From contig DZCR01000001.1 of assembly GCA_022736495.1 (NCBI GenBank), positions 36,726-100,725 on the forward strand: a stretch of 64,000 nt of DNA, in the 5' to 3' direction. Position numbers and translations under genes: made by a program. The stretch is from Desulfobacca acetoxidans (GTDB lineage: Bacteria; Desulfobacterota; Desulfobaccia; Desulfobaccales; 0-14-0-80-60-11). A model generated the notes under the pieces. It was not told the DNA's origin and did not search any database. It saw only the letters and a program-made list of their open reading frames with translations. Of the stretch, positions 939-34,800 are shown in pieces; positions within the stretch are counted from its first letter, which is position 1; every line of letters begins with the position of its first letter.

Positions 939-1772
939 TTATAGGCAATATATTAATTCAGAATGCAACCCCCCATTACTCACCACAATATTAGGCGCGA
1001 AGATGTCGTAGTCGCCCCCATCAAAAGTAGTAATCTCCCCCCCGGCCTCTGTGACAATGACCACCCCCGCGGCGGTATCCCAGGGTTTCAGGTTTTCTTC
1101 GAAGTAGCCGTCGAAGCGGCCGCAGGCGATGTAGCTCATATCCAGGGCCGCAGAGCCGGCCCGGCGCAACCCTTGAGAAGCCGCCACCACCCGGCCTAAG
1201 CGGGCCATGGTCTTGGGTATGCGCTCCCGGATGTCGTAGGGAAACCCGGTGGCGATGAGGGCCCGGTCCATCCGGGCGGTATCGGAGACCCGGATGGGTT
1301 GACCGTTGCAGGTGGCCCCCCCGCCCCTTCTCCCCTCGAAGAGCTCATCCCGCATGGGGTCGTAGACCACCCCGTATTCCAGCACCCCGTCGGCTTCACA
1401 GGCGATGGACACGCAGAACGCCGGAATCCCGTGGGCGAAATTGACGGTGCCGTCCAGGGGGTCGATGATCCAACGGCACGTCGGCGGCGCGTCGGCTTCC
1501 CAGGCCAGACCGGGGGGGCCAATCTCCTGGGCAGCCGGGGGCGTCTGCCCCACCTCCCCCTCCCTTGCCGTTTCCTCCGCCAGAAAACCATGGTCCGGAA
1601 AGGCTTGGCGGATCATGCCGATGATGATTTCCTGGCATTGGTAATCCGTTTCGGTCACCGGGTCGATGGCCCCCTTCATGATAATCTCATGGGGTTGCTC
1701 GTAATTTAAGCGCATCACCGCGCCCGCGGCCAGCGCCGCTTGCCGCCCGATCTGGGCGATTTTGTCCATCAT
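939..1772 (-). CDS. Inositol monophosphatase family phosphatase
   Basis: This 277-residue protein has the Li-sensitive metal-dependent phosphatase signature: the Glu pair near residues 66-67 (L-A-E-E-T-A), W-I-I-D-P-L-D-G-T at 101-109 followed by N-F-A-H-G-I-P, and W-D-T-A-A-G at 231-236 with a downstream E-A-G-G. All metal ligands expected for IMPase/SuhB are present. Residues 70-97 form an insertion rich in Pro and Gly between the first two motifs that is longer than in the standard enzyme. Known members hydrolyse myo-inositol-1-phosphate, fructose-1,6-bisphosphate or PAP, or act as NusA-linked SuhB; the sequence alone does not choose among them. The start is the first of two adjacent ATGs, with AAGGAAA about 8 bases upstream. 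Confidence 0.88.
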   Translation of the reverse strand: MMDKIAQIGRQAALAAGAVMRLNYEQPHEIIMKGAIDPVTETDYQCQEIIIGMIRQAFPDHGFLAEETAREGEVGQTPPAAQEIGPPGLAWEADAPPTCRWIIDPLDGTVNFAHGIPAFCVSIACEADGVLEYGVVYDPMRDELFEGRRGGGATCNGQPIRVSDTARMDRALIATGFPYDIRERIPKTMARLGRVVAASQGLRRAGSAALDMSYIACGRFDGYFEENLKPWDTAAGVVIVTEAGGEITTFDGGDYDIFAPNIVVSNGGLHSELIYCL

Positions 1773-1791
1773 CTGCTTTCCTTGTTTTCCA

Positions 1792-1836
1792 GTTCAAAGT
1801 TCGAGGTTCGAGGTTCTAAAACTTTGAACTTTGAAC
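1792..1836. repeat. Intergenic inverted repeat of GTTCAAAGTT type
   Basis: Between the phosphatase and PPC-domain genes a left arm GTTCAAAGTT (1792-1801) is followed by two copies of a TCGAGGTTCG-like unit and then by the complementary arm AACTTTGAAC, present twice in overlapping register (1820-1829 and 1827-1836). It can fold into a stem of about 10 bp. A related AAACTTTGAACTTTT string lies near 60694, so this is probably a dispersed intergenic element. No T-run follows on either strand, so a terminator function is not supported. Confidence 0.5.
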
Positions 1837-1865
1837 CCTTTGATAACTATTACTAAACAATCCCA

Positions 1866-2324
1866 TTATTTTTTCTCCGGCCCCACCGTCAGCAACTGAA
1901 ACCCGGTCTCCGGGTCTTTCCGGCGCAGGGCAGCGGTCCCGACAATCTCCAGCACGACAACCTCGCCCACCAGCCAGACGTCCATCCCGGCCCGGGTGCA
2001 GCCCACGGTGGCCCGGCCTTCCCGGCCCGAGGCGGCGTGCATGTGGAGCACCGGTGCGCCTTTCTCGTCGGGGAAGAGCGTGCCCACCGCCAAAACCTCC
2101 TGGGACCCCCGGAGCATATGGATAAGCGGCACCACGGCATCAACGCGGTCGGCATCGGGGCCCACCACCACCTTGCTGCCGCTGGCGGCGCCGCCCAGGT
2201 AAAAGGCCAAGGCGTGGGTAAGATTCTGCTCCCAAGCAAAGGCCTCCAGGGTGTCGTTGAGACGCTCCCCGTCCTCCAGTCTCAGCACAAAGACTCGTCC
2301 CATCCTGCCTTCGGTGTAGTGCAT
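1866..2324 (-). CDS. PPC/DUF296 domain protein
   Basis: A single-domain 152-residue protein of the PPC (DUF296) family. It shows the characteristic opening R-V-F-V-L-R-L-E-D-G-E, a central G-S-Q-E-V-L-A-V-G-T-L segment and the conserved L-H-M-H-A-A-S-G motif, followed by the G-x-V-W-L-V-G-E-V strand. In plants this domain follows AT-hooks. Bacterial members are usually stand-alone, form trimers, and have a conserved His cluster that may bind a metal; their function is unsettled and is often guessed as DNA binding. No AT-hook is present here. The ATG is preceded by GGGAGA at proper distance. It is codirectional with the phosphatase gene downstream, separated by the inverted repeat. Confidence 0.82.
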   Translation of the reverse strand: MHYTEGRMGRVFVLRLEDGERLNDTLEAFAWEQNLTHALAFYLGGAASGSKVVVGPDADRVDAVVPLIHMLRGSQEVLAVGTLFPDEKGAPVLHMHAASGREGRATVGCTRAGMDVWLVGEVVVLEIVGTAALRRKDPETGFQLLTVGPEKK

Positions 2325-2422
2325 AATGTCTCCCTTCAGATGATCAGGGCGGACACAGGTCCACCTCTACAACTTATCATATTAAGGACAACCGTATTAG
2401 CCTTAGATTTATTTCTCAATGC

Positions 2423-3145
2423 TTACTTTTTCTTGGCCTTACCGGCTGCTTTCTTCCTTGGCGCGGTTTTGGCATTAACCGGGGCCGCAGCCATGCTCAC
2501 GGGCGTGAACAGGTTGACCGTGAGCAGGCCCATAAAGAAGCCCCCCAGGTGGGCCATCCAGGCCACCGCGCCGCCGCTGCGCAGGCCGTAGAATTGCAGC
2601 GCCAGCCATAGTCCCAACCAGACAAAAGCGGGGATGTACACCGCCTCCGGGCGCAACCGCCAGAAAACAATGGTGCAGATGGGAGACTTGGGCAGCCGGA
2701 TCAGATAACCGCCCAAGACCCCGGCGATGGCGCCGCTGGCGCCGATCAGGGGCGCAGCCAGGCTGGAGGCCGCCAGCACGTGAAAGATGCAGGCGAAAAA
2801 ACCGCAAAACAGGTAAAAACTGAGAAACCGAACGTGCCCCAGGTCATCTTCCAGGGCTTCCCCAAAGACCCAGAGAAACCACATGTTGCCGATAAGGTGC
2901 ACCCAGCCGGCGTGGAGGAAGAGGGAGCTGAACATGGTGGGCAATAGGCCCAAAGACTGGCGGAAGCTCAGGACCTTGAGGCGGCTCAGCTTGGAGGCTA
3001 CTGCGCCCTTATGATAAAACAGATCCGTCGTGGCGTCGGAGCCGATGTGCAGTTGATAGAGAAAAACTGCCAGATTGACGGCGATCAGGCCCAGAGTGAT
3101 CCAAGGCCACCGGCGTTGGGCCGGCGCCCCGCGCACGGGAATCAT
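2423..3145 (-). CDS. Rhomboid family intramembrane serine protease
   Basis: This 240-residue polytopic protein has the rhomboid catalytic dyad: Ser137 in G-A-S-G-A-I-A-G and His199 in W-M-A-H-L-G-G. The conserved H-x-x-x-N of the second helix is also there (His83 and Asn87 in H-L-I-G-N-M-W-F). About six hydrophobic helices are visible, beginning at residues 15-32 after a short basic N-terminus. The C-terminal 30 residues are rich in Ala, Pro and Lys and should lie in the cytoplasm. Rhomboids cleave single-pass membrane proteins within or near the bilayer. The substrate cannot be told from context. No strong ribosome-binding site precedes the ATG. Confidence 0.92.
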   Translation of the reverse strand: MIPVRGAPAQRRWPWITLGLIAVNLAVFLYQLHIGSDATTDLFYHKGAVASKLSRLKVLSFRQSLGLLPTMFSSLFLHAGWVHLIGNMWFLWVFGEALEDDLGHVRFLSFYLFCGFFACIFHVLAASSLAAPLIGASGAIAGVLGGYLIRLPKSPICTIVFWRLRPEAVYIPAFVWLGLWLALQFYGLRSGGAVAWMAHLGGFFMGLLTVNLFTPVSMAAAPVNAKTAPRKKAAGKAKKK

Positions 3146-9897: not shown

Positions 9898-10320
9898 TTA
9901 CAGGGCGCTCCGGTCGAGGCTAACCTCCATGGCCCGAGCCGGACAGACCGGACAACACAGCTCGCAGGCGCTGCATTTGGTGGCGTCAAACAGCACCTCC
10001 ATCTCCGGCCGCTTGATGAAGAGGGCCCCGGTGGGACAGACCGCCGTACAAGCGCCGCACTGGTAACAGCGCTCTTCATTACGCCGCACATCCCGGGCGA
10101 CCCGCTGGACCTTAACCCCCGCTTCCCGCAGGTATTTGAGGCCCCGGCGAAAATTCTTCGGGTGCCCCCTCAACTCCATGACCATCACCCCTTCTTTGCG
10201 GGGATAGATGGTGGCCTTGAGCAGATTAAACTCCAGGTCGTAATCCTTGACCAGGCGATAAATGATGGGTTGATCCACCACCTCCTGGGAAAATCGCAGC
10301 ACTAACATTTCCGCGTGCAT
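9898..10320 (-). CDS. NIL domain / 2[4Fe-4S] ferredoxin
   Basis: This 140-residue protein joins an N-terminal NIL-type domain (about residues 5-75; F-S-Q-E-V-V-D-Q-P-I-I-Y, then L-L-K-A-T-I-Y-P-R-K-E-G) to a bacterial ferredoxin. The ferredoxin clusters are C-Y-Q-C-G-A-C-T-A-V-C-P and C-S-A-C-E-L-C-C-P-V-C-P, the second with an extra Cys. NIL domains bind amino acids such as methionine in MetN ABC ATPases. Stand-alone NIL-ferredoxins are common in anaerobes and have been linked to sulfur incorporation and homocysteine or methionine metabolism. That link is family knowledge, not shown here. GAGGATTAGG lies directly before the ATG. Confidence 0.88.
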   Translation of the reverse strand: MHAEMLVLRFSQEVVDQPIIYRLVKDYDLEFNLLKATIYPRKEGVMVMELRGHPKNFRRGLKYLREAGVKVQRVARDVRRNEERCYQCGACTAVCPTGALFIKRPEMEVLFDATKCSACELCCPVCPARAMEVSLDRSAL

Positions 10321-10467: not shown

Positions 10468-11178
10468 CTAAGAAAGCTCCGGCGCCCAGAAAGGGCGGGT
10501 CTGGGCAATTTCTCTTATAGCGCCCACAAATCCGCTTAAATAATCCTGCTTGCGGGAAACATAATCCAAGCATAACCGTTTTTGGAAAAAATCCCCTGAA
10601 AACAATTTGACCAAGTCTGCAAGTTGGATAATGCCTTCTTCGGTAGCAGGATCAAACCGGATCCAGTTGCGGATGTGCTCTTCCGACCGGAAGAGATTCA
10701 TGGTGCTTCACGCATGGGGGAGACGGCCCAGCCATTTCGAGAATGGCACCGCAACGTACCCTAAAGTTTCTTCCGGTACCGCTTTCAATATCTGCCCATC
10801 CCGGATTTCAATGTGAACCGGCAAACCGCAATCAAGGCACGGGGCTGCAATCTGGACAACCTTCCCTGGGAAAAGCCAGCAAACTGCCAGCGACTCAAAA
10901 CCTCATTGACCAAACCACTTTTGTTTGCCATCCACAGTGATGCGATATTGGGTGGGGAGATTACTGAAAGGGGCAAAACTGCTTATGTAGTCAGTGTCGG
11001 GAAACAACCAAATTCCTGGAATCCCTGCGGACATCAGGTCGTGAAGAGCCCTGCGGGCTTCCTCAAGCGGAATCTGCAGCTCCCCCGCTAACTCCGTGTA
11101 GTGGGGCGCCTGACCCGACTGCACCATCCTTGTCAAGATCGCATGGTATACTTTATCCAAGAGGCTTGGTGAGCTCAT
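10468..11178 (-). CDS. Alkylmercury lyase (MerB)-like protein with two predicted selenocysteines
   Basis: Read through two in-frame TGA codons (10905-10903 and 10710-10708), this frame gives one uninterrupted 236-residue protein. The first 91 residues are a winged-helix domain (A-P-H-Y-T-E-L-A, E-E-A-R-R-A-L-H-D-L-M) and the F-A-P-F-S-N-L-P-T-Q-Y-R segment. The TGAs are codons 92 (F-G-Q-U-G-F-E-S-L-A-V) and 157 (P-H-A-U-S-T-M-N-L-F). In MerB the catalytic cysteines are Cys96 and Cys159, in W-C-A-L-D and F-C-C-H-V-H-F-F-A contexts, so both TGAs fall where catalytic Cys is expected. The Asp99 position is Glu95, and Cys114 and Cys117 match the third conserved Cys region. Each TGA is followed by a SECIS-like hairpin. 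MerB breaks C-Hg bonds; the true substrate here is open. The ATG has GGGGAGG upstream. Alternative reading: a decayed gene, made unlikely by the placement of the stops. Confidence 0.85.
10678..10695 (-). promoter_or_regulatory. Bacterial SECIS-like hairpin for the second UGA (codon 157)
   Basis: Counting U of the UGA as 1, nucleotides 16-22 (CUCUUCC) pair perfectly with 27-33 (GGAAGAG) around the tetraloop GGUC at 23-26. The E. coli fdhF SECIS also presents GGUC in its apical loop, at nucleotides 22-25 from the UGA, which is the part SelB recognises. Stem, loop and distance therefore all agree with a functional bacterial SECIS inside the reading frame. Confidence 0.82.
10875..10891 (-). promoter_or_regulatory. 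Bacterial SECIS-like hairpin for the first UGA (codon 92)
   Basis: From the U of the UGA, nucleotides 15-20 (GCUGGC) can pair with 26-31 (GCUGGC) through four Watson-Crick and two G-U pairs, leaving the loop AGUUU at 21-25. The G-U step at 22-23 is where bacterial SECIS elements carry the conserved loop G-U. The stem is weaker than that of the second element but correctly placed. Confidence 0.65.
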
Positions 11179-11182
11179 TGTC

Positions 11183-11201
11183 CTTACCTCCCCTAGGTAA
11201 G
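11183..11201 (-). promoter_or_regulatory. Dyad over the ribosome-binding site of the MerB-like gene
   Basis: CTTACCT (in transcript sense) is followed by AGGGG and then AGGTAAG, a perfect 7-bp inverted repeat. It lies between the -10 box and the ATG and contains the GGGGAGG ribosome-binding site. It could be an operator for a metal- or stress-responsive repressor, or an RNA hairpin that hides the ribosome-binding site. No regulator gene of ArsR or MerR type is in the neighbourhood. Confidence 0.5.
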
Positions 11202-11210
11202 ATTACGTAA

Positions 11211-11238
11211 ATTATATCAGATAATTGGCCTTCCTCAA
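11211..11238 (-). promoter_or_regulatory. Sigma-70 promoter of the MerB-like gene
   Basis: On the minus strand TTGAGG (11238-11233) is followed after 16 bases by a perfect TATAAT (11216-11211). The predicted transcription start is near 11204, immediately before the dyad. The -35 box overlaps the last codons of purL, so the gene has its own transcription unit. Confidence 0.6.
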
Positions 11239-14219
11239 ATCAGGTCGCCAAAACGGCGCTCCCAGGCGGACTTGAGGGTTTCCAATGGGGCCGCCAGCAT
11301 GGGCTGCCCGTGCCGAGAAATCTCTACGGTTTGATCGGAGCGCACCTGGCCGATTAAGGTAAGGGGCTGGCCGCGCCAGAGTTCTTCCAGGCGGACCTGG
11401 TGGGCCGGGTCGATGCTCACCAGGAACCGCCCGGCCGACTCGGAGTAGAGACTGGCGTAGGCCGGAGATTCCGGGGCCACCCGGCTCAGGTCCGCCTCTA
11501 CGCCCAACCCCGCGGCCAGGCTTGACAGAACCAGGTGCACCCCCAGGCCGCCCCGATAGAGGCCGTGGGCCGAGGCCAACAGTTCGGCCCGGATCGCCTC
11601 TTCGAGCAAACGGTAATAAGCGAGAAATTCCTCGGGGTGAACCTCAGGCACACTCAGGCCCACATAGCCCAACATCTCGTAAAATTCCGAGCCGCCCAGT
11701 TCGGGCCGGGTGTCGCCCACCAAATAAATGAGGTCTCCGGGCCGCTTCCATTCCGGGCTCAGGGCCCGACGCAGGTCCGGCAGCACGCTCACCGCGGTAA
11801 AAAACAGGGTGGGCAGACCGCTTACCCGGTGCATCTCCCCATAGGCGCCGGGTATCACACCGTCCACATACATGCTGTCTTTACCCGACAACAATGGAAC
11901 CCCGTAAGCCAGGCACAGATCCTTGAGGGCCAGGCAGGAGCGCACCAGTTGGGCCGCCTTGTAGCGCCCGTCGGGATTCACGCCTGGATCGTATTCCACG
12001 CTGGGCCAGCAGAAATTATCCACCCCGCCGATGTGGTCCAGGGTCCCGCCCACCGCCAGCAAACGCCGCACCGCCTCGTCGATGGTCACCGCGGTCATGT
12101 GATAGGTGTCGATCTGGGAATAAGCGGGGCACACGGCCAGGCTCAGGGCCAGCCCCCGGCGGGAGTCCGGCCGGGGGCGCAGGATCGCGGCATCGCCGGG
12201 CACCGGGGTGAACTCTCCCACCAGGGGTTTGATCACGCTGGCCCCCTGGACCTCGTGGTCGTATTGCCGGGAGATCCACTCCCGGGAGCAAATGTTGGGC
12301 CGGTCCAGCAGGGCCAGGAGAACGCCCAGGTGGTCTCCGGGGTCGCTCAGGACCGGCTCGGTCAGACGGGTCTCCGGCGGCAGCCATTCGGCTGCAAACT
12401 CCCAGGGAGGGAACTCCTCCTCCAGGAATGACAAATCCATATAAGCGCAGGTGCGGCCCTGGTATTTTACCTCCAGAACTCCGCGGTCGGTATAGCGGCC
12501 CATGACGGTGGCCTCCACCGCATGCTTCCGGGCCAGGCCCTTGAAGGCGGCTTCGTGCTCCGGCTTGACGGCCACCACCATGCGTTCCTGAGATTCGGAC
12601 ACCCAGATTTCCCAGGGGTCCAGCCCCTGGTATTTGAGGGGTATCGCCTCCAGCCAGACTTCGCCGCCGCCGGCCATTTGAGCCGATTCCCCCACCGCCG
12701 AGGACAGCCCGCCGCCGCCGCAGTCGGTGATGAAGGTGATGAGCCCCTGGTCCCGGGCCTCTAACAGGAAGTCATGCATGTTCTTCTGGGTGTAGGGGTC
12801 GCCGATCTGGACGTGGCCCGCCGGGGTGCCGGGAGAGGAGACCTCGGACGACGCAGTAACCCCGTGGATGCCATCCTGGCCCACCCGGCCGCCGCAGGTA
12901 ACGATCAGGTCGCCGGGGTGCGCGGCTTTGTCGGCCCCGGGCTCGCCGTTGATTTCCCGAGGCAGCAACCCCACCGCGCCCACAAACACCAGGCATTTAC
13001 CCAAATAGGCGGCATCGAAATAGAGGGCGCCGTTGACGGTGGGCACCCCGCTCTTGTTGCCGCCGTCTTTGACGCCTTCAATGACGCCGTCCAGGAGCCG
13101 CCGGGGGTGCAGTCGGGGTTTGAGCGGCCCGGCATAGTTCCGGGGACCCACGCAAAAGCCGTACAGGCCCCCGATGAGGCGAGCCCCTTTGCCAGTCCCC
13201 AGAGGGTCCCGGTAAACGCCCACAATGCCGGTAAGTGAGCCGCCGTAGGCCTCCAGGTTGGAAGGGGAATTGTGGGTCTCGCCCTTGATCACGTAGGAAA
13301 ACTCGTCGTCCAACTGCCCCACCCCGGCGTTATCCCAGAGCACCGAGACCACCCAGGGTTTGTGTTTGCTGATCTCCCGGGTGGGTGCGGAGATGCAGGT
13401 CTTGAACGGATTTTCCAGGATGAAGCTTTCCCCGCTCCTCAAATCCCGGTAATGGAAGCGCCCCCGGAAGGTGTTGTGGTTGCAGTGGTCGCTGCGGGCC
13501 TGGGCCAGGTATTCCAGTTCCACGTCAGTGGGGGCGGACAGCCCCACCGCAGCCCGCCGGGCCTGGACTTCCGGACGCTGAAAGTAATCCAGGATAACCG
13601 GTAGGTCGGCATCCCGGAGCGCCAGATGACGCTGGCAGCTCAGGTGCTTGAGGACTTCCGGCGAGGCGATCTCAAAGGCCTCCACCGCGGGGGTGTGGGC
13701 CAGCGCCACCCGAGGCAGAATAATGCCTATGCCTTTATCGGAGTCCCAGGTCTCCCGGGAAAAAATCCGGAATTCCTGGACCATGTCGTTAGCCAGGAGT
13801 TCCCGGGCGATCTGGGCCGCATGGTTCCCGGTGAGCTGGTCGCCGGTTAACAGGAAGAGCTTGGAGGTATACACCGCGGCCCCGGTGGGTAGGGGCTGCC
13901 CCAGATAGGCTTCCAGGGCTTCCCGGGCCACAGCCCCGGCCGTATCCCGCACGCCGGGCTTAAAGCCCACCCAAATGGCCCATTGGAAATCCCGGGCCAG
14001 GGTTTGAAAGCTGGAGACTTGGGTGGTGGGATGCGTGAAGATCTCCGTGCGGATCGCCTCCAGGCTCGCCAGGGGAAGATCCACATCCAGCATGAGCACT
14101 CGCAAAACCCGGACAGCCGTGAGGTCAAAGCCGAAGTATTCCCGGGCCTGGCGACGCACCCCCTCCCCTTCTGCGTCGATCAGGTCCGGGCGCCAACCGA
14201 TTTCCAGCCGCACTGCCAT
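11235..14219 (-). CDS. purL: Phosphoribosylformylglycinamidine synthase, PurL type with N-terminal PurS-like region
   Basis: PurL converts FGAR to FGAM with ATP and ammonia in purine synthesis. This 994-residue protein begins with about 180 residues that look like PurS-type modules (R-L-E-I-G-W-R-P-D-L, D-A-E-G-E-G-V-R-R). The PurL core follows: an A-R-S-D-H-C-N-H-N-T-F-R-G-like catalytic block, F-S-Y-V-I-K-G-E-T-H-N-S-P-S, G-T-G-K-G-A-R-L-I-G-G, D-C-G-G-G-G-L-S-S-A-V-G-E and a second AIRS half with L-L-S-G-K-D-S-M. No glutaminase domain is attached, so a separate PurQ is expected elsewhere. The length lies between small PurL (about 740) and the large three-domain enzyme (about 1300), which fits a PurS-PurL fusion. 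GGGGAG precedes the ATG. Confidence 0.93.
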   Translation of the reverse strand: MAVRLEIGWRPDLIDAEGEGVRRQAREYFGFDLTAVRVLRVLMLDVDLPLASLEAIRTEIFTHPTTQVSSFQTLARDFQWAIWVGFKPGVRDTAGAVAREALEAYLGQPLPTGAAVYTSKLFLLTGDQLTGNHAAQIARELLANDMVQEFRIFSRETWDSDKGIGIILPRVALAHTPAVEAFEIASPEVLKHLSCQRHLALRDADLPVILDYFQRPEVQARRAAVGLSAPTDVELEYLAQARSDHCNHNTFRGRFHYRDLRSGESFILENPFKTCISAPTREISKHKPWVVSVLWDNAGVGQLDDEFSYVIKGETHNSPSNLEAYGGSLTGIVGVYRDPLGTGKGARLIGGLYGFCVGPRNYAGPLKPRLHPRRLLDGVIEGVKDGGNKSGVPTVNGALYFDAAYLGKCLVFVGAVGLLPREINGEPGADKAAHPGDLIVTCGGRVGQDGIHGVTASSEVSSPGTPAGHVQIGDPYTQKNMHDFLLEARDQGLITFITDCGGGGLSSAVGESAQMAGGGEVWLEAIPLKYQGLDPWEIWVSESQERMVVAVKPEHEAAFKGLARKHAVEATVMGRYTDRGVLEVKYQGRTCAYMDLSFLEEEFPPWEFAAEWLPPETRLTEPVLSDPGDHLGVLLALLDRPNICSREWISRQYDHEVQGASVIKPLVGEFTPVPGDAAILRPRPDSRRGLALSLAVCPAYSQIDTYHMTAVTIDEAVRRLLAVGGTLDHIGGVDNFCWPSVEYDPGVNPDGRYKAAQLVRSCLALKDLCLAYGVPLLSGKDSMYVDGVIPGAYGEMHRVSGLPTLFFTAVSVLPDLRRALSPEWKRPGDLIYLVGDTRPELGGSEFYEMLGYVGLSVPEVHPEEFLAYYRLLEEAIRAELLASAHGLYRGGLGVHLVLSSLAAGLGVEADLSRVAPESPAYASLYSESAGRFLVSIDPAHQVRLEELWRGQPLTLIGQVRSDQTVEISRHGQPMLAAPLETLKSAWERRFGDLI

Positions 14220-31364: not shown

Positions 31365-31796
31365 TTACGCCGCCTGGGGGGTCCGCTTCAGGCGCGAGGG
31401 GCCCATTTCCCTGATTTTTTCGGTAAAATCCCGGATCGTTTGGGCCAGCTTGGGACCTTCCGCCGCGGAGATCCACTCCAGGTGCAAGCGGCCGTCTTCG
31501 TAGCCGGTGAATTTCAGGAGATCCTGGAGGAACCGCATGCGTTTGATGGTCATGTAATTGCCCCTCAGATAGTGGCAGTCGCCGATGTGGCAGCCGCCGA
31601 TGAGCACCCCGTCGGCGCCTTTCTGGAAGGCCCGGAGCACGTGGTGGGGTGACACCGTCCCGGAGCACATAACCCGGATCACCCGGATGTTGGGAGGATA
31701 TTGCAAGCGCGAAACGCCGGCCAGGTCGGCCCCGGCATAGGTACACCAGTTACAGAAAAACCCAATGATTTTCGGTTCGAACTTTTTGTCGGTCAT
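31365..31796 (-). CDS. mvhD: MvhD-family [2Fe-2S] electron-transfer subunit
   Basis: MvhD/VhuD/FlxD proteins connect hydrogenase, formate dehydrogenase or flavoprotein modules to HdrA. The 143-residue product has the family opening I-I-G-F-F-C-N-W-C-T-Y-A-G-A-D, then R-V-M-C-S-G-T-V-S, and the G-A-D-G-V-L-I-G-G-C-H-I-G-D-C-H-Y block. In some methanogens the last Cys (G-D-C-H-Y) is selenocysteine; here it is an ordinary Cys, although the neighbouring HdrA uses a Sec codon. It lies 42 bases after hdrA and 33 bases before the iron-sulfur gene, within one operon. Position and the five conserved cysteines make the assignment firm. Confidence 0.93.
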   Translation of the reverse strand: MTDKKFEPKIIGFFCNWCTYAGADLAGVSRLQYPPNIRVIRVMCSGTVSPHHVLRAFQKGADGVLIGGCHIGDCHYLRGNYMTIKRMRFLQDLLKFTGYEDGRLHLEWISAAEGPKLAQTIRDFTEKIREMGPSRLKRTPQAA

Positions 31797-31837
31797 GCCC
31801 CAATCCTTATTACGGGAATACCTGAAATGAAGCGAGG

Positions 31838-34800
31838 TTAGGCCCCCGCAGCTTCTCCCAGCTCGGTTTCCAGGTCCTTTAACGCCTCATCCACCTGGGT
31901 GTAAATCTGTTTGTGGCTGAACCCGAACAGCGTGATGCACTCGGAGGGACAGTTGGCCGCGCAGGTGCCGCAGCCTTTGCACAACGCCTGGTTGACCTCG
32001 CACACGTCGTCCCGTTCCTTGTAATCGATGGCCCCGAAGGGACAAACCCCCACGCAGGCCTGACAACCGGAACACGCCGCCGCATCAATCTGGGCCACCA
32101 CGCCCCCGGCCCGGATCGCCTCCTGGGCCAGGACCACCGAAGCCCGGGCCGCCGCGGCCTTGGCCTGGGCAATGGCTTCATCCATGGGTTTGGGGTAGTG
32201 GGCCAGGCCAGCCACGAACACGCCATCCGTGGCGAAATCCACGGGCCTGAGCTTCATGTGGGCTTCCAGAAAGAAGCCGTCGTTGTTCAAGGGCACCTTG
32301 AACAACTGAGCCAGCTTTTCCTGGTCCTTGACGATGATGGCGCTGGCCAGGGTCAGAACATCCGGGGTGATGGTCAGGGGGATGCCCAGGATGTTGTCCC
32401 GCACCGTCACCGTCAGGCCGCCGTCTGCGGACTGCATCACCTGGGGTTTGTTCTCCAGGTCGAAGCGGATAAAGATCACACCCTTGGCCCGGGCCTCTTT
32501 ATAGAGGTTTTCCCGCCGCCCATAAGTGCGCAGATCCCGATAGAGGATGTAGACATCCATGTCGGGATTGATTTCTTTGAGCCTGAGGGCATTATCCACG
32601 GAATGGGTACAGCATATCCGGCTGCAATAGGGCCGCTCCGGCTCCCGGGAGCCCACGCATTGGATGAAGACCGCGCTCTTGGCCCCCATGACCAGGGGAT
32701 CCTGTTCCCGCAAGGCCTTGTCCATTTCCAGGTTCACCAACACCCGGGGATTCTCTTCATAAAGATATTCCTTGGGTTTAAAGGAGTGGCCGCCGATGGC
32801 AATGACCGCGGCGCCATGCTCTACCTCGGTGGAGCGGCCTTCACCGGTGATGAGAGACGTAAAATTTCCCACAAACCCCTGAACGCTGCTGACTTCGGAA
32901 TTGAGGTGCACGTCGATCTTGGGGTGACCGTTTACCCGCCGCACCAACTCGTCCACATAAGGCCGCACCGCTTCCCCGTTCCAGGTCTGGTTGAGTTTCA
33001 GGGCATGACCGCCCAGGAAACCCTTTTTTTCCACCAGGTCTACTTTGTAGCCTTGGCTGGCCAAACCCAGCGCGGCCTCCATGCCGGCCACGCCACCCCC
33101 GATAATGAGACCGGCCTTGCTGACGGGCAGGTCAAATTCCTGCAAAGGCGGCTGCAGGCCTACGGTGGCCACGGCCATGCGCACCTGGTCTTTGGCCCGG
33201 TGCGTTGCGGCCTCGGGCTCGTTCATGTGCACCCAGGAGCCCTGGTCCCGGATGTTGGCCATTTGAAAGAGGTACTTATTGAGGCCGGCTTCCTTGATGG
33301 TCTCCTGGAAGGTGGGTTCATGGGTGCGCGGCGTGCAGGAGGCCACCACCACGCGATTGAGGTTGTGCTCCTTAATGCGCTCCTTGATAAGTTCCTGGGT
33401 ATCCTGGGAGCAGGCAAACAGGCTGTTCTCCACAAATGCCACGTTCGGCAGCGTCTTAGCGTAATCCCGCACCGCTTCCACATCGATGACGCTGGCGATA
33501 TTGATGCCGCAGTGGCAAACAAACACGCCGATGCGGGGGACTTCCTGAGACACATCCCGCTCGCCGAAAACGGGTTTTTTCTTGGCCAGGGAGTACCGGG
33601 CGTCGGCCAAAAGTTCGCTGGCCGCCGCGGCCGCGGCCGAGGCCTCCATCACCGATTGGGGGATATCCTTGGGGCCCTGGAAAGCGCCACAGACAAAGAT
33701 TCCCGGCTGGTTGGTCGAGACCGGCGTAAACGACGAGGTTTCGGTAAAGCGGTCGGCGTTTAGTTCGACACCCAGAACGCGGCTCAATTCTATGGCACTG
33801 GGAGCCACCTCCAGACCGGTGGACAGCACCAACAAGTCGAAGGTTTCCACCTTCAAGGCGCCGTCTTCGCTCAGGTAGCGGATACTGACGTTTTCGGTGC
33901 CCGGCACCGGATCGATGCTGTGGACCCGGGAGCGGATAAACCGAATCCCGAATTCTTCTTCGGCCCGCCAGTAGTATTTCTCAAATTCCTTGCCGTGGGT
34001 GCGCATATCCATAAAGAAAATGGCGGCGTCCAGGGGCTCTTTGCTATGCTCCTTGGCAATCACCGCCTCCTTGATGGCATACATGCAACACACCGCCGAG
34101 CAGTAGCTGTTATCGCAGTGATGCAGGTCCCGGGACCCCACGCACTGCAGCCAGGCGATCTTTTTGGGCTCTTTATGATCTGATGGCCTGACCATGTGGC
34201 CTTGGAAAGGCCCGGCGGCCGCCAGGATGCGCTCAAACTCCATGCCCGTGATGACGTTGGGAAATTCGGTGTAATGATAACCCGCATATTTGGCCGGATC
34301 GTAAGGCTTAAAACCCGGGGCCAAAATCACTGCGCCCACCGTCACATCCTTTTCCACATCCTCCTGCGAGAAATCCACTGCCCCGGTGGGACAGAACTTT
34401 TCGCAGGCCCTGCACTTGCCCCCTTTCTGAAAATAGATGCAGACATCCTTATCAATGGCATACTTGGGGGGGATTGCCTGGGCATAGGCCATGTACGCGG
34501 CCTTGCGGGGGGCCAGATTCAGGTTGAATGCATCGGGGACTCTTTTGGGGCATTTCTCGGCGCAGAGACCGCAAGCAATACACTTGGCCATATCGATATA
34601 GCGCGCCATCTGACGCACCTTAACCGAGAAATGGCCCGGGTCGCCGCTGATGCCCACGACCTGGGCCGGAGCCAGGATCTCGATATTAATGTGCCGGCCG
34701 ACCTCGACCAGCTTGGGCGAAATGATTCACATTGCACAGTCATTGGTGGGGAAGGTCTTGTCAAGCTGCGACATGACCCCACCAATGGCCGGCTTCTCCT

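What the first reader, a model, noticed from the sequence alone, without database searches (positions are those of the whole stretch)
10468..11178. MerB-like protein with selenocysteine at both catalytic cysteine positions
Two in-frame TGA codons, at codons 92 and 157, interrupt an otherwise perfect 236-codon frame. They fall where MerB has its catalytic Cys96 and Cys159 (spacing 65 versus 63). The rest of the frame has no lesion, conserved segments continue on both sides of each TGA, and both TGAs are followed by hairpins with SECIS-like loops at the correct distance. Decay would not place two stops of the same kind at exactly the two active-site thiols. Mercury binds selenium far more strongly than sulfur, so a diselenol/selenol-thiol active site would change organomercury chemistry, or the protein may act on another substrate (organoarsenic, organotin, alkyl-metal or a redox target). 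I do not recall a described double-Sec MerB homologue, but I could not search.
Basis: partly seen in the sequence, partly recalled or inferred. Interest (0 to 1): 0.95.

Follow-up and report, generated by a model that had tools for sequence, protein, structure and literature searches.

The report
Double-selenocysteine mercury-lyase-like enzyme
A gene that looks broken by two stop codons is a real gene shared by many uncultured bacteria, mostly anaerobes: the evidence says both stops are read as selenocysteine, exactly where the organic-mercury-splitting enzyme MerB has its two catalytic cysteines, so ordinary gene finding cuts the protein short; what it acts on is not yet known.

The parts
10468..11178 (-). 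double-selenocysteine MerB-like gene, 236 codons plus TAG stop
11187..11193 (-). Shine-Dalgarno-like GGGGAGG, 8 nt before the ATG
   Evidence: sequence printed
10903..10905 (-). TGA codon 92 = Sec92, aligned to MerB Cys96
10894..10896 (-). Glu95, aligned to MerB Asp99; E in 71 of 71 rows with a residue
10875..10891 (-). SECIS-like hairpin 1 (nt 15-31 counted from the T of TGA codon 92), loop AGTTT here; GGTCT is commonest in relatives (27 of 65)
   Evidence: 385 of 390 pair cells formed
10837..10839 (-). Cys114 of conserved CLDC motif, aligned to MerB Cys117
   Evidence: C 70, gap 2
10828..10830 (-). Cys117 of conserved CLDC motif
   Evidence: C 67, S 3, gap 2
10708..10710 (-). TGA codon 157 = Sec157, aligned to MerB Cys159
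10678..10695 (-). SECIS-like hairpin 2 (nt 16-33 counted from the T of TGA codon 157), CTCTTCC-GGTC-GGAAGAG
   Evidence: 472 of 483 pair cells formed, loop GGTC in 65 of 69
10603..10968 (-). PF03243 MerB domain (residues 71-192), 68.3 bits against cut-off 27
9898..10320 (-). downstream neighbour, NIL-domain ferredoxin (context only; no such neighbour cluster)
11235..14219 (-). upstream neighbour purL (PurSL); it ends in TGA used as an ordinary stop

Best explanation
A stand-alone selenoenzyme of the MerB fold in which both catalytic thiols are selenols. Shown by sequence: UGA92 and UGA157 are conserved, each has its own SECIS-like hairpin, and they sit at the Cys96 and Cys159 positions, with Glu95 at the Asp99 position. 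Inferred: both are decoded as Sec, the two selenols capture a soft alkyl-metal cation (most likely R-Hg+), Glu95 protonates the leaving carbon, and the metal stays between the two seleniums until handed to a cellular thiol or to sulfide. It would be a low-concentration organometal (methylmercury-type) lyase of anaerobes.
Against: Function untested; Sec not detected in a protein. Asp99, named essential in MerB (PMC8261052, passage), is Glu. No mer operon beside it; a MerA match over cut-off in only 1 of 15 carrier genomes, although weaker matches are reported in 14 of 15 genomes as they are in 13 of 14 controls. Neighbours not conserved. hgcA is absent from 9 of the 20 double-TGA genomes, from 33 of 64 carriers and from the five near relatives of the window organism; the association is not corrected for kinship, and the 20 include at least one genome (G085, L129) whose double-TGA gene is of another MerB subfamily. 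The window's own genome was not available, and its two nearest sampled relatives (G042, G221) have no MerB-domain match. Two of 205 listed relatives have Ser or Gly at column 92.
Confidence: 0.6

Rival explanations
1. Real double-selenoprotein, but a non-mercury enzyme: it cleaves another carbon-metal(loid) bond (As, Sn, Se, Te) or does diselenide/selenol redox chemistry.
For: No mer genes beside it; MerA over cut-off in 1 of 15 carriers; five Chloroflexi copies lie by a HTH/PBP-like regulator and an ABC transporter that looks like molybdate/tungstate systems (the transporter naming is by eye); the conserved CLDC pair adds two thiols. The relative SaoL is assigned to a 'Sec-assisted organometallic' system (PMC13188914, passages).
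Against: The MerB active-site columns are kept with chemically alike residues, including an acid at the Asp99 column in 71 of 71 rows, which a plain redox protein would not obviously need.
Confidence: 0.3
2. Real double-selenoprotein acting as a non-catalytic mercury or soft-metal sponge or sensor through its winged-helix N-terminus and diselenol site.
For: The N-terminal domain resembles winged helices of LexA and DtxR-type regulators; a diselenol site would hold Hg(II) very tightly (recalled chemistry); no conserved neighbour.
Against: The alignment to MerB2 covers model residues 1-203, so the enzyme MerB has the same N-terminal part; invariance of Glu95 and Gln91 points to catalysis.
Confidence: 0.08
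3. Pseudogene: two nonsense mutations in a dying merB.
For: Frames with a few TGAs are common in this GC-rich window.
Against: The same two TGAs in 62 loci whose titles name several phyla, with hairpin constraint and covariation.
Confidence: 0.005
4. TGA is reassigned (for example to Trp) in these organisms, so there is no selenocysteine.
For: 53 of 205 listed database proteins show Trp at both columns, one more does on inspection (P0063).
Against: Trp most likely comes from table-4 gene calling (inferred; their DNA was not seen). purL next door stops at TGA; in the 72 DNA rows the columns hold TGA or Cys (H in one broken row), and no Trp codon; SelA and SelB are present.
Confidence: 0.01

Closest known systems
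[quoted passage not shown]
   Same: MerB-domain selenoprotein; in L106 (173.9 bits, over the cut-off of 140) the Sec codon of the matched domain (TCUN) falls at the same column as Sec157 and is followed by a similar hairpin
   Different: L106 has Cys at the Cys96 column and Asp at the Asp99 column; the review gives SaoL one Sec and an operon with six selenoprotein genes (PMC13188914). The window protein has Sec at both columns, Glu for Asp, no such neighbours seen, and scores 41.6 bits
MerB organomercurial lyase (PF03243; PDB 1s6l, 3f0o and kin; MerB2 5c17)
   Different: Sec for Cys96 and Cys159, Glu for Asp99, an extra Cys (CLDC), about 27 residues beyond the MerB-aligned part, no mer genes beside it; 30.9 bits against the MerB cut-off of 193
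HgcA and HgcB mercury-methylation proteins, listed with Sec-containing forms in PMC13188914
   Same: Sec forms of mercury-handling proteins
   Different: no such match in the family scans run here, and the reaction is the opposite one (recalled)

Membership tests
bacterial selenoprotein | in-frame UGA conserved in homologues and exchanged with Cys | tested here: met
   column 92 U65/C6, column 157 U69 with H in one broken row; Cys/Cys proteins; exceptions at column 92 Ser (P0075) and Gly (P0103)
bacterial selenoprotein | SECIS hairpin directly 3' of each UGA | tested here: met
bacterial selenoprotein | host has selA, selB, selC | tested here: inconclusive
   the window's own genome is not held; in carrier relatives SelA 15/15, SelB 60/64, tRNA-Sec 12/15 over cut-off
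bacterial selenoprotein | Sec detected in the protein | not testable with these tools
   needs 75Se labelling or mass spectrometry
MerB (alkylmercury lyase) | PF03243 above gathering score | tested here: met
   68.3 bits, cut-off 27
MerB (alkylmercury lyase) | NCBIfam curated cut-off | tested here: not met
   NF009710 30.9 of 193; NF033555 24.1 of 200
MerB (alkylmercury lyase) | Cys96, Asp99, Cys159 | tested here: not met
   Sec, Glu, Sec at the aligned columns; chemically alike but not the same residues
MerB (alkylmercury lyase) | MerB fold | tested here: met
MerB (alkylmercury lyase) | organomercurial cleavage activity | not testable with these tools
   assay needed
SaoL | NF040728 cut-off 140 bits | tested here: not met
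   41.6 bits
SaoL | Cys-Sec dipeptide, single Sec | tested here: not met
   Ala-Sec, two Sec
SaoL | SAO operon | tested here: inconclusive
   window neighbours are purL, a NIL ferredoxin and an MFS protein and no neighbour cluster exceeds 9 of 73 loci including the window, but the SAO models were not run on the loci

The most novel reading that the evidence does not exclude
A family of diselenol organomercury lyases, spread through uncultured anaerobes including many hgcA-bearing putative mercury methylators, whose UGA codons make gene callers truncate it, so that it is a hidden methylmercury-degrading activity missing from merB surveys.
Probability: 0.3. Interest if true: 0.92.

Novelty: new variant of a known kind. 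Interest (0 to 1): 0.78.

Why it matters
It would be an enzyme family in which Sec replaces both catalytic thiols of a metal-handling active site. It can be tested at once, because Cys/Cys relatives exist as natural controls. Two merB surveys seen in passages required Cys159 (PMC11308531) or built their model on Cys96 and Cys159 (PMC9948709) and so would probably drop these genes. Among 205 listed database relatives, 144 have Cys at 92 and end without an alignable column 157, and 53 carry Trp at both columns. If active on methylmercury, it would bear on how methylating anaerobes without a recognised MerB demethylate mercury.

Tried and rejected
Conserved operon: clustering of 677 neighbouring ORFs around 72 loci plus the window gave no cluster in more than 9 loci. 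Small shared contexts only: Fe-S/FAD genes in some Syntrophaceae, HTH regulator plus ABC transporter in five Chloroflexi. Rfam scan of the window at gathering scores: 0 matches; ARAGORN: no tRNA. Viral contigs: 30 stretches matched a pattern, none a relative. Wider codon windows (94-104, 159-169) gave only p=0.076 and p=0.089 for reduced synonymous entropy; the significant test uses the hairpin codons of the window's own fold (96-101, 162-167), a definition adopted. Of the six C92 members, four still fold a similar hairpin and two (L048, L055) do not, so loss of the hairpin with loss of Sec is only partly seen. tRNA-Sec was not over cut-off in 3 of 15 genomes (G002, G006, G007), though SelA and SelB were. 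Four of 49 carrier genomes (G322, G329, G332, G343) lacked SelB at the threshold. Tree of 82 rows: the family is one group against 11 other MerB rows (100/99); CU and CC each need at least 2 changes nested in UU. This suggests ancestral Sec/Sec with later Cys, but the root is a midpoint and there are long branches and open forks. The tree left out L049, L067, L068, L070, L072. Ten other TGA-containing window frames were scanned with Pfam: two had a domain, neither crossing a TGA (with the piece lengths). Foldseek against PDB: after MerB, the rows with E above 0.3 are no evidence. Papers: PMC9879109 and PMC12013261 (cited in PMC13188914 for the SAO and Tso systems) are not held, so a double-Sec MerB described there cannot be excluded. 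PMC2398784, PMC5029168 and PMC12013277 were searched by terms only and do not hold 'MerB' in the main text. PMC8261052: term search, no 'selenocysteine'. PMC9312934: one passage, lists an 'Alkylmercury lyase MerB-like protein' with the accession that PMC13188914 gives for SaoL.

Full report
OBSERVATION. The gene lies on the minus strand, 11178 to 10468. It has a GGGGAGG ribosome site 8 nt before its ATG, 236 codons, a TAG stop, and TGA at codons 92 and 157. Frames interrupted only by TGA are common in this window, so the frame alone proves little. The homologues do. A scan of a collection with one genome per species gave 72 loci that encode a relative. Reading each through TGA gave 72 aligned rows including the window; L068 was left out. 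Both columns are TGA in 63 rows, Cys/TGA in 6 (L041, L048, L052, L055, L065, L066), and 3 rows are partial or broken (L067, L070, L072). Record titles name Deltaproteobacteria, Syntrophaceae, Desulfobacterales, Nitrospirae, Nitrospinae, Poribacteria, Abyssobacteria, Chloroflexi with SAR202, and a few MAGs labelled Alphaproteobacteria, Acidimicrobiia and Actinobacteria; MAG labels may be wrong.

In the protein database, of 205 listed relatives (the best 120 of each of two searches, overlaps counted once), 106 have Cys at 92 and end at about residue 156, 38 have Cys at 92 and end without an alignable column 157, 53 have Trp at both columns, 3 have Cys at both, and 5 are other. Of those 5, P0063 also has Trp at both on inspection, and P0075 and P0103 have Ser and Gly at column 92. 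The Trp rows look like translation with table 4, which I infer. So ordinary annotation cuts or mistranslates this protein.

SECIS. Behind each TGA folds a hairpin: nt 15-31 counted from the T of codon 92 (loops mostly GGTCT 27 and GGTCA 12 of 65) and nt 16-33 from codon 157 (loop GGTC in 65 of 69). Pair cells formed: 385 of 390 and 472 of 483. In 63 UU rows the hairpin codons have mean normalised synonymous entropy 0.23 (11 codons) against 0.87 (152 codons), p=1.3e-6; the eight lowest of these 163 codons all lie in the hairpins. Two wider windows tried first gave p=0.076 and 0.089, and the narrower definition was adopted afterwards from the window's own fold. The basal pair of hairpin 2 covaries: CTC with GAG 41, TTC with GAA 20, against 5 and 2 mixed, p=1.2e-10 by Fisher, not corrected for kinship. 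This is RNA-level selection as expected of bacterial SECIS elements (their layout is recalled).

HOST. The window's genome is not held. Its PurL is 88% identical to a protein named Thermodesulfobacteriota and 84% to one named Desulfobaccales. In 15 carrier genomes SelA and SelB pass their cut-offs in 15 of 15 and tRNA-Sec in 12 of 15; of 14 named control genomes, 1, 2 and 5 pass. SelB passes in 45 of 49 further carriers and in 5 of 5 genomes nearest to the window by PurL among 297 sampled. The two nearest of these have no MerB-domain match.

RELATIVES WITHIN MerB. In the 15 carrier genomes, 18 of 18 PF03243 matches over cut-off hold two TGAs, and a nineteenth, below it, has one. In 297 genomes of the phylum, 34 have PF03243, of which 20 hold a double-TGA copy. 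Other subfamilies also use Sec codons: L101 and L129 have TGA at both columns but keep Asp (AAUAID), L102 has TGA at both, and L106 is over the SaoL cut-off (173.9 bits) with Cys and Sec. A hairpin of the same kind is predicted after the second Sec codon in L129, L102 and after the one Sec codon of the domain in L106, but not as the best fold in L101, L109 or L110. Sec at the Cys159 column therefore looks old in MerB-like proteins, with Sec at the Cys96 column in some groups; this is inference.

HOW IT LIKELY WORKS. In MerB, Cys96, Asp99 and Cys159 are named as essential (PMC8261052, passage); that the thiols bind the metal and Asp99 delivers the proton is recalled. With Sec at both, a more acidic and more mercury-loving pair would take up R-Hg+ at very low concentration, and Glu95 would protonate carbon. 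Product release is the hard step and might use the CLDC thiols, cellular thiols or sulfide. All of this paragraph beyond the residue positions is inference. The lack of mer genes as conserved neighbours and a MerA match over cut-off in only 1 of 15 carriers speak against the classical resistance pathway.

hgcA LINK. HgcA over cut-off: 10 of 15 and 21 of 49 carriers. In the phylum sample it is 11 of 20 double-TGA genomes against 72 of 277 others, odds ratio 3.5, p=0.009. This is not corrected for kinship, includes the centre genome G001, and mixes subfamilies (G085 holds the L129 type; the copies of G122, G145 and G274 were not examined). The five nearest relatives of the window organism have none. 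It is a lead only.

NOVELTY. A 2026 review's table (119 families by its own count; PMC13188914, section 7 parts 1 and 2 read) lists one MerB-like selenoprotein, SaoL, with one Sec. NCBIfam release 20 has no model that takes the window protein above cut-off. Searches of the held library showed no paper on a double-Sec MerB in the rows listed; several listings were capped (for example 12 of 1,763). The two most relevant papers are not held. I rate it a new variant of a known kind.

Noticed in passing
L101 1171..1920 (+) and L129 about 1429..2586 (-): A second, very divergent MerB-like group with TGA at both catalytic columns that keeps Asp at the Asp99 position (AAUAIDAIA ... AFUR).
   Followed up: partly
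G015 (genome of L013), loci L096, L100, L103: Three MerB-domain matches in one Nitrospirae MAG, each reported with two in-frame TGAs.
   Followed up: no
L053, L054, L056, L059, L061: In five Chloroflexi loci the gene sits beside a HTH/PBP-like regulator and an ABC transporter that by eye resembles molybdate/tungstate systems (Pfam run only on the regulator of L053).
   Followed up: partly
L010 4103..5968 (+): Gene starts 32 nt behind a B12-binding radical SAM protein, a candidate partner in alkyl chemistry.
   Followed up: no
window 31371..32498 (-): MvhD/FlpD-type hydrogenase delta subunit domain; the family has Sec forms elsewhere (review table), but here the domain lies behind the TGAs of the frame.
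   Followed up: partly
carrier genomes: 31 of 64 searched carriers of this gene also carry the mercury-methylation gene hgcA.
   Followed up: partly
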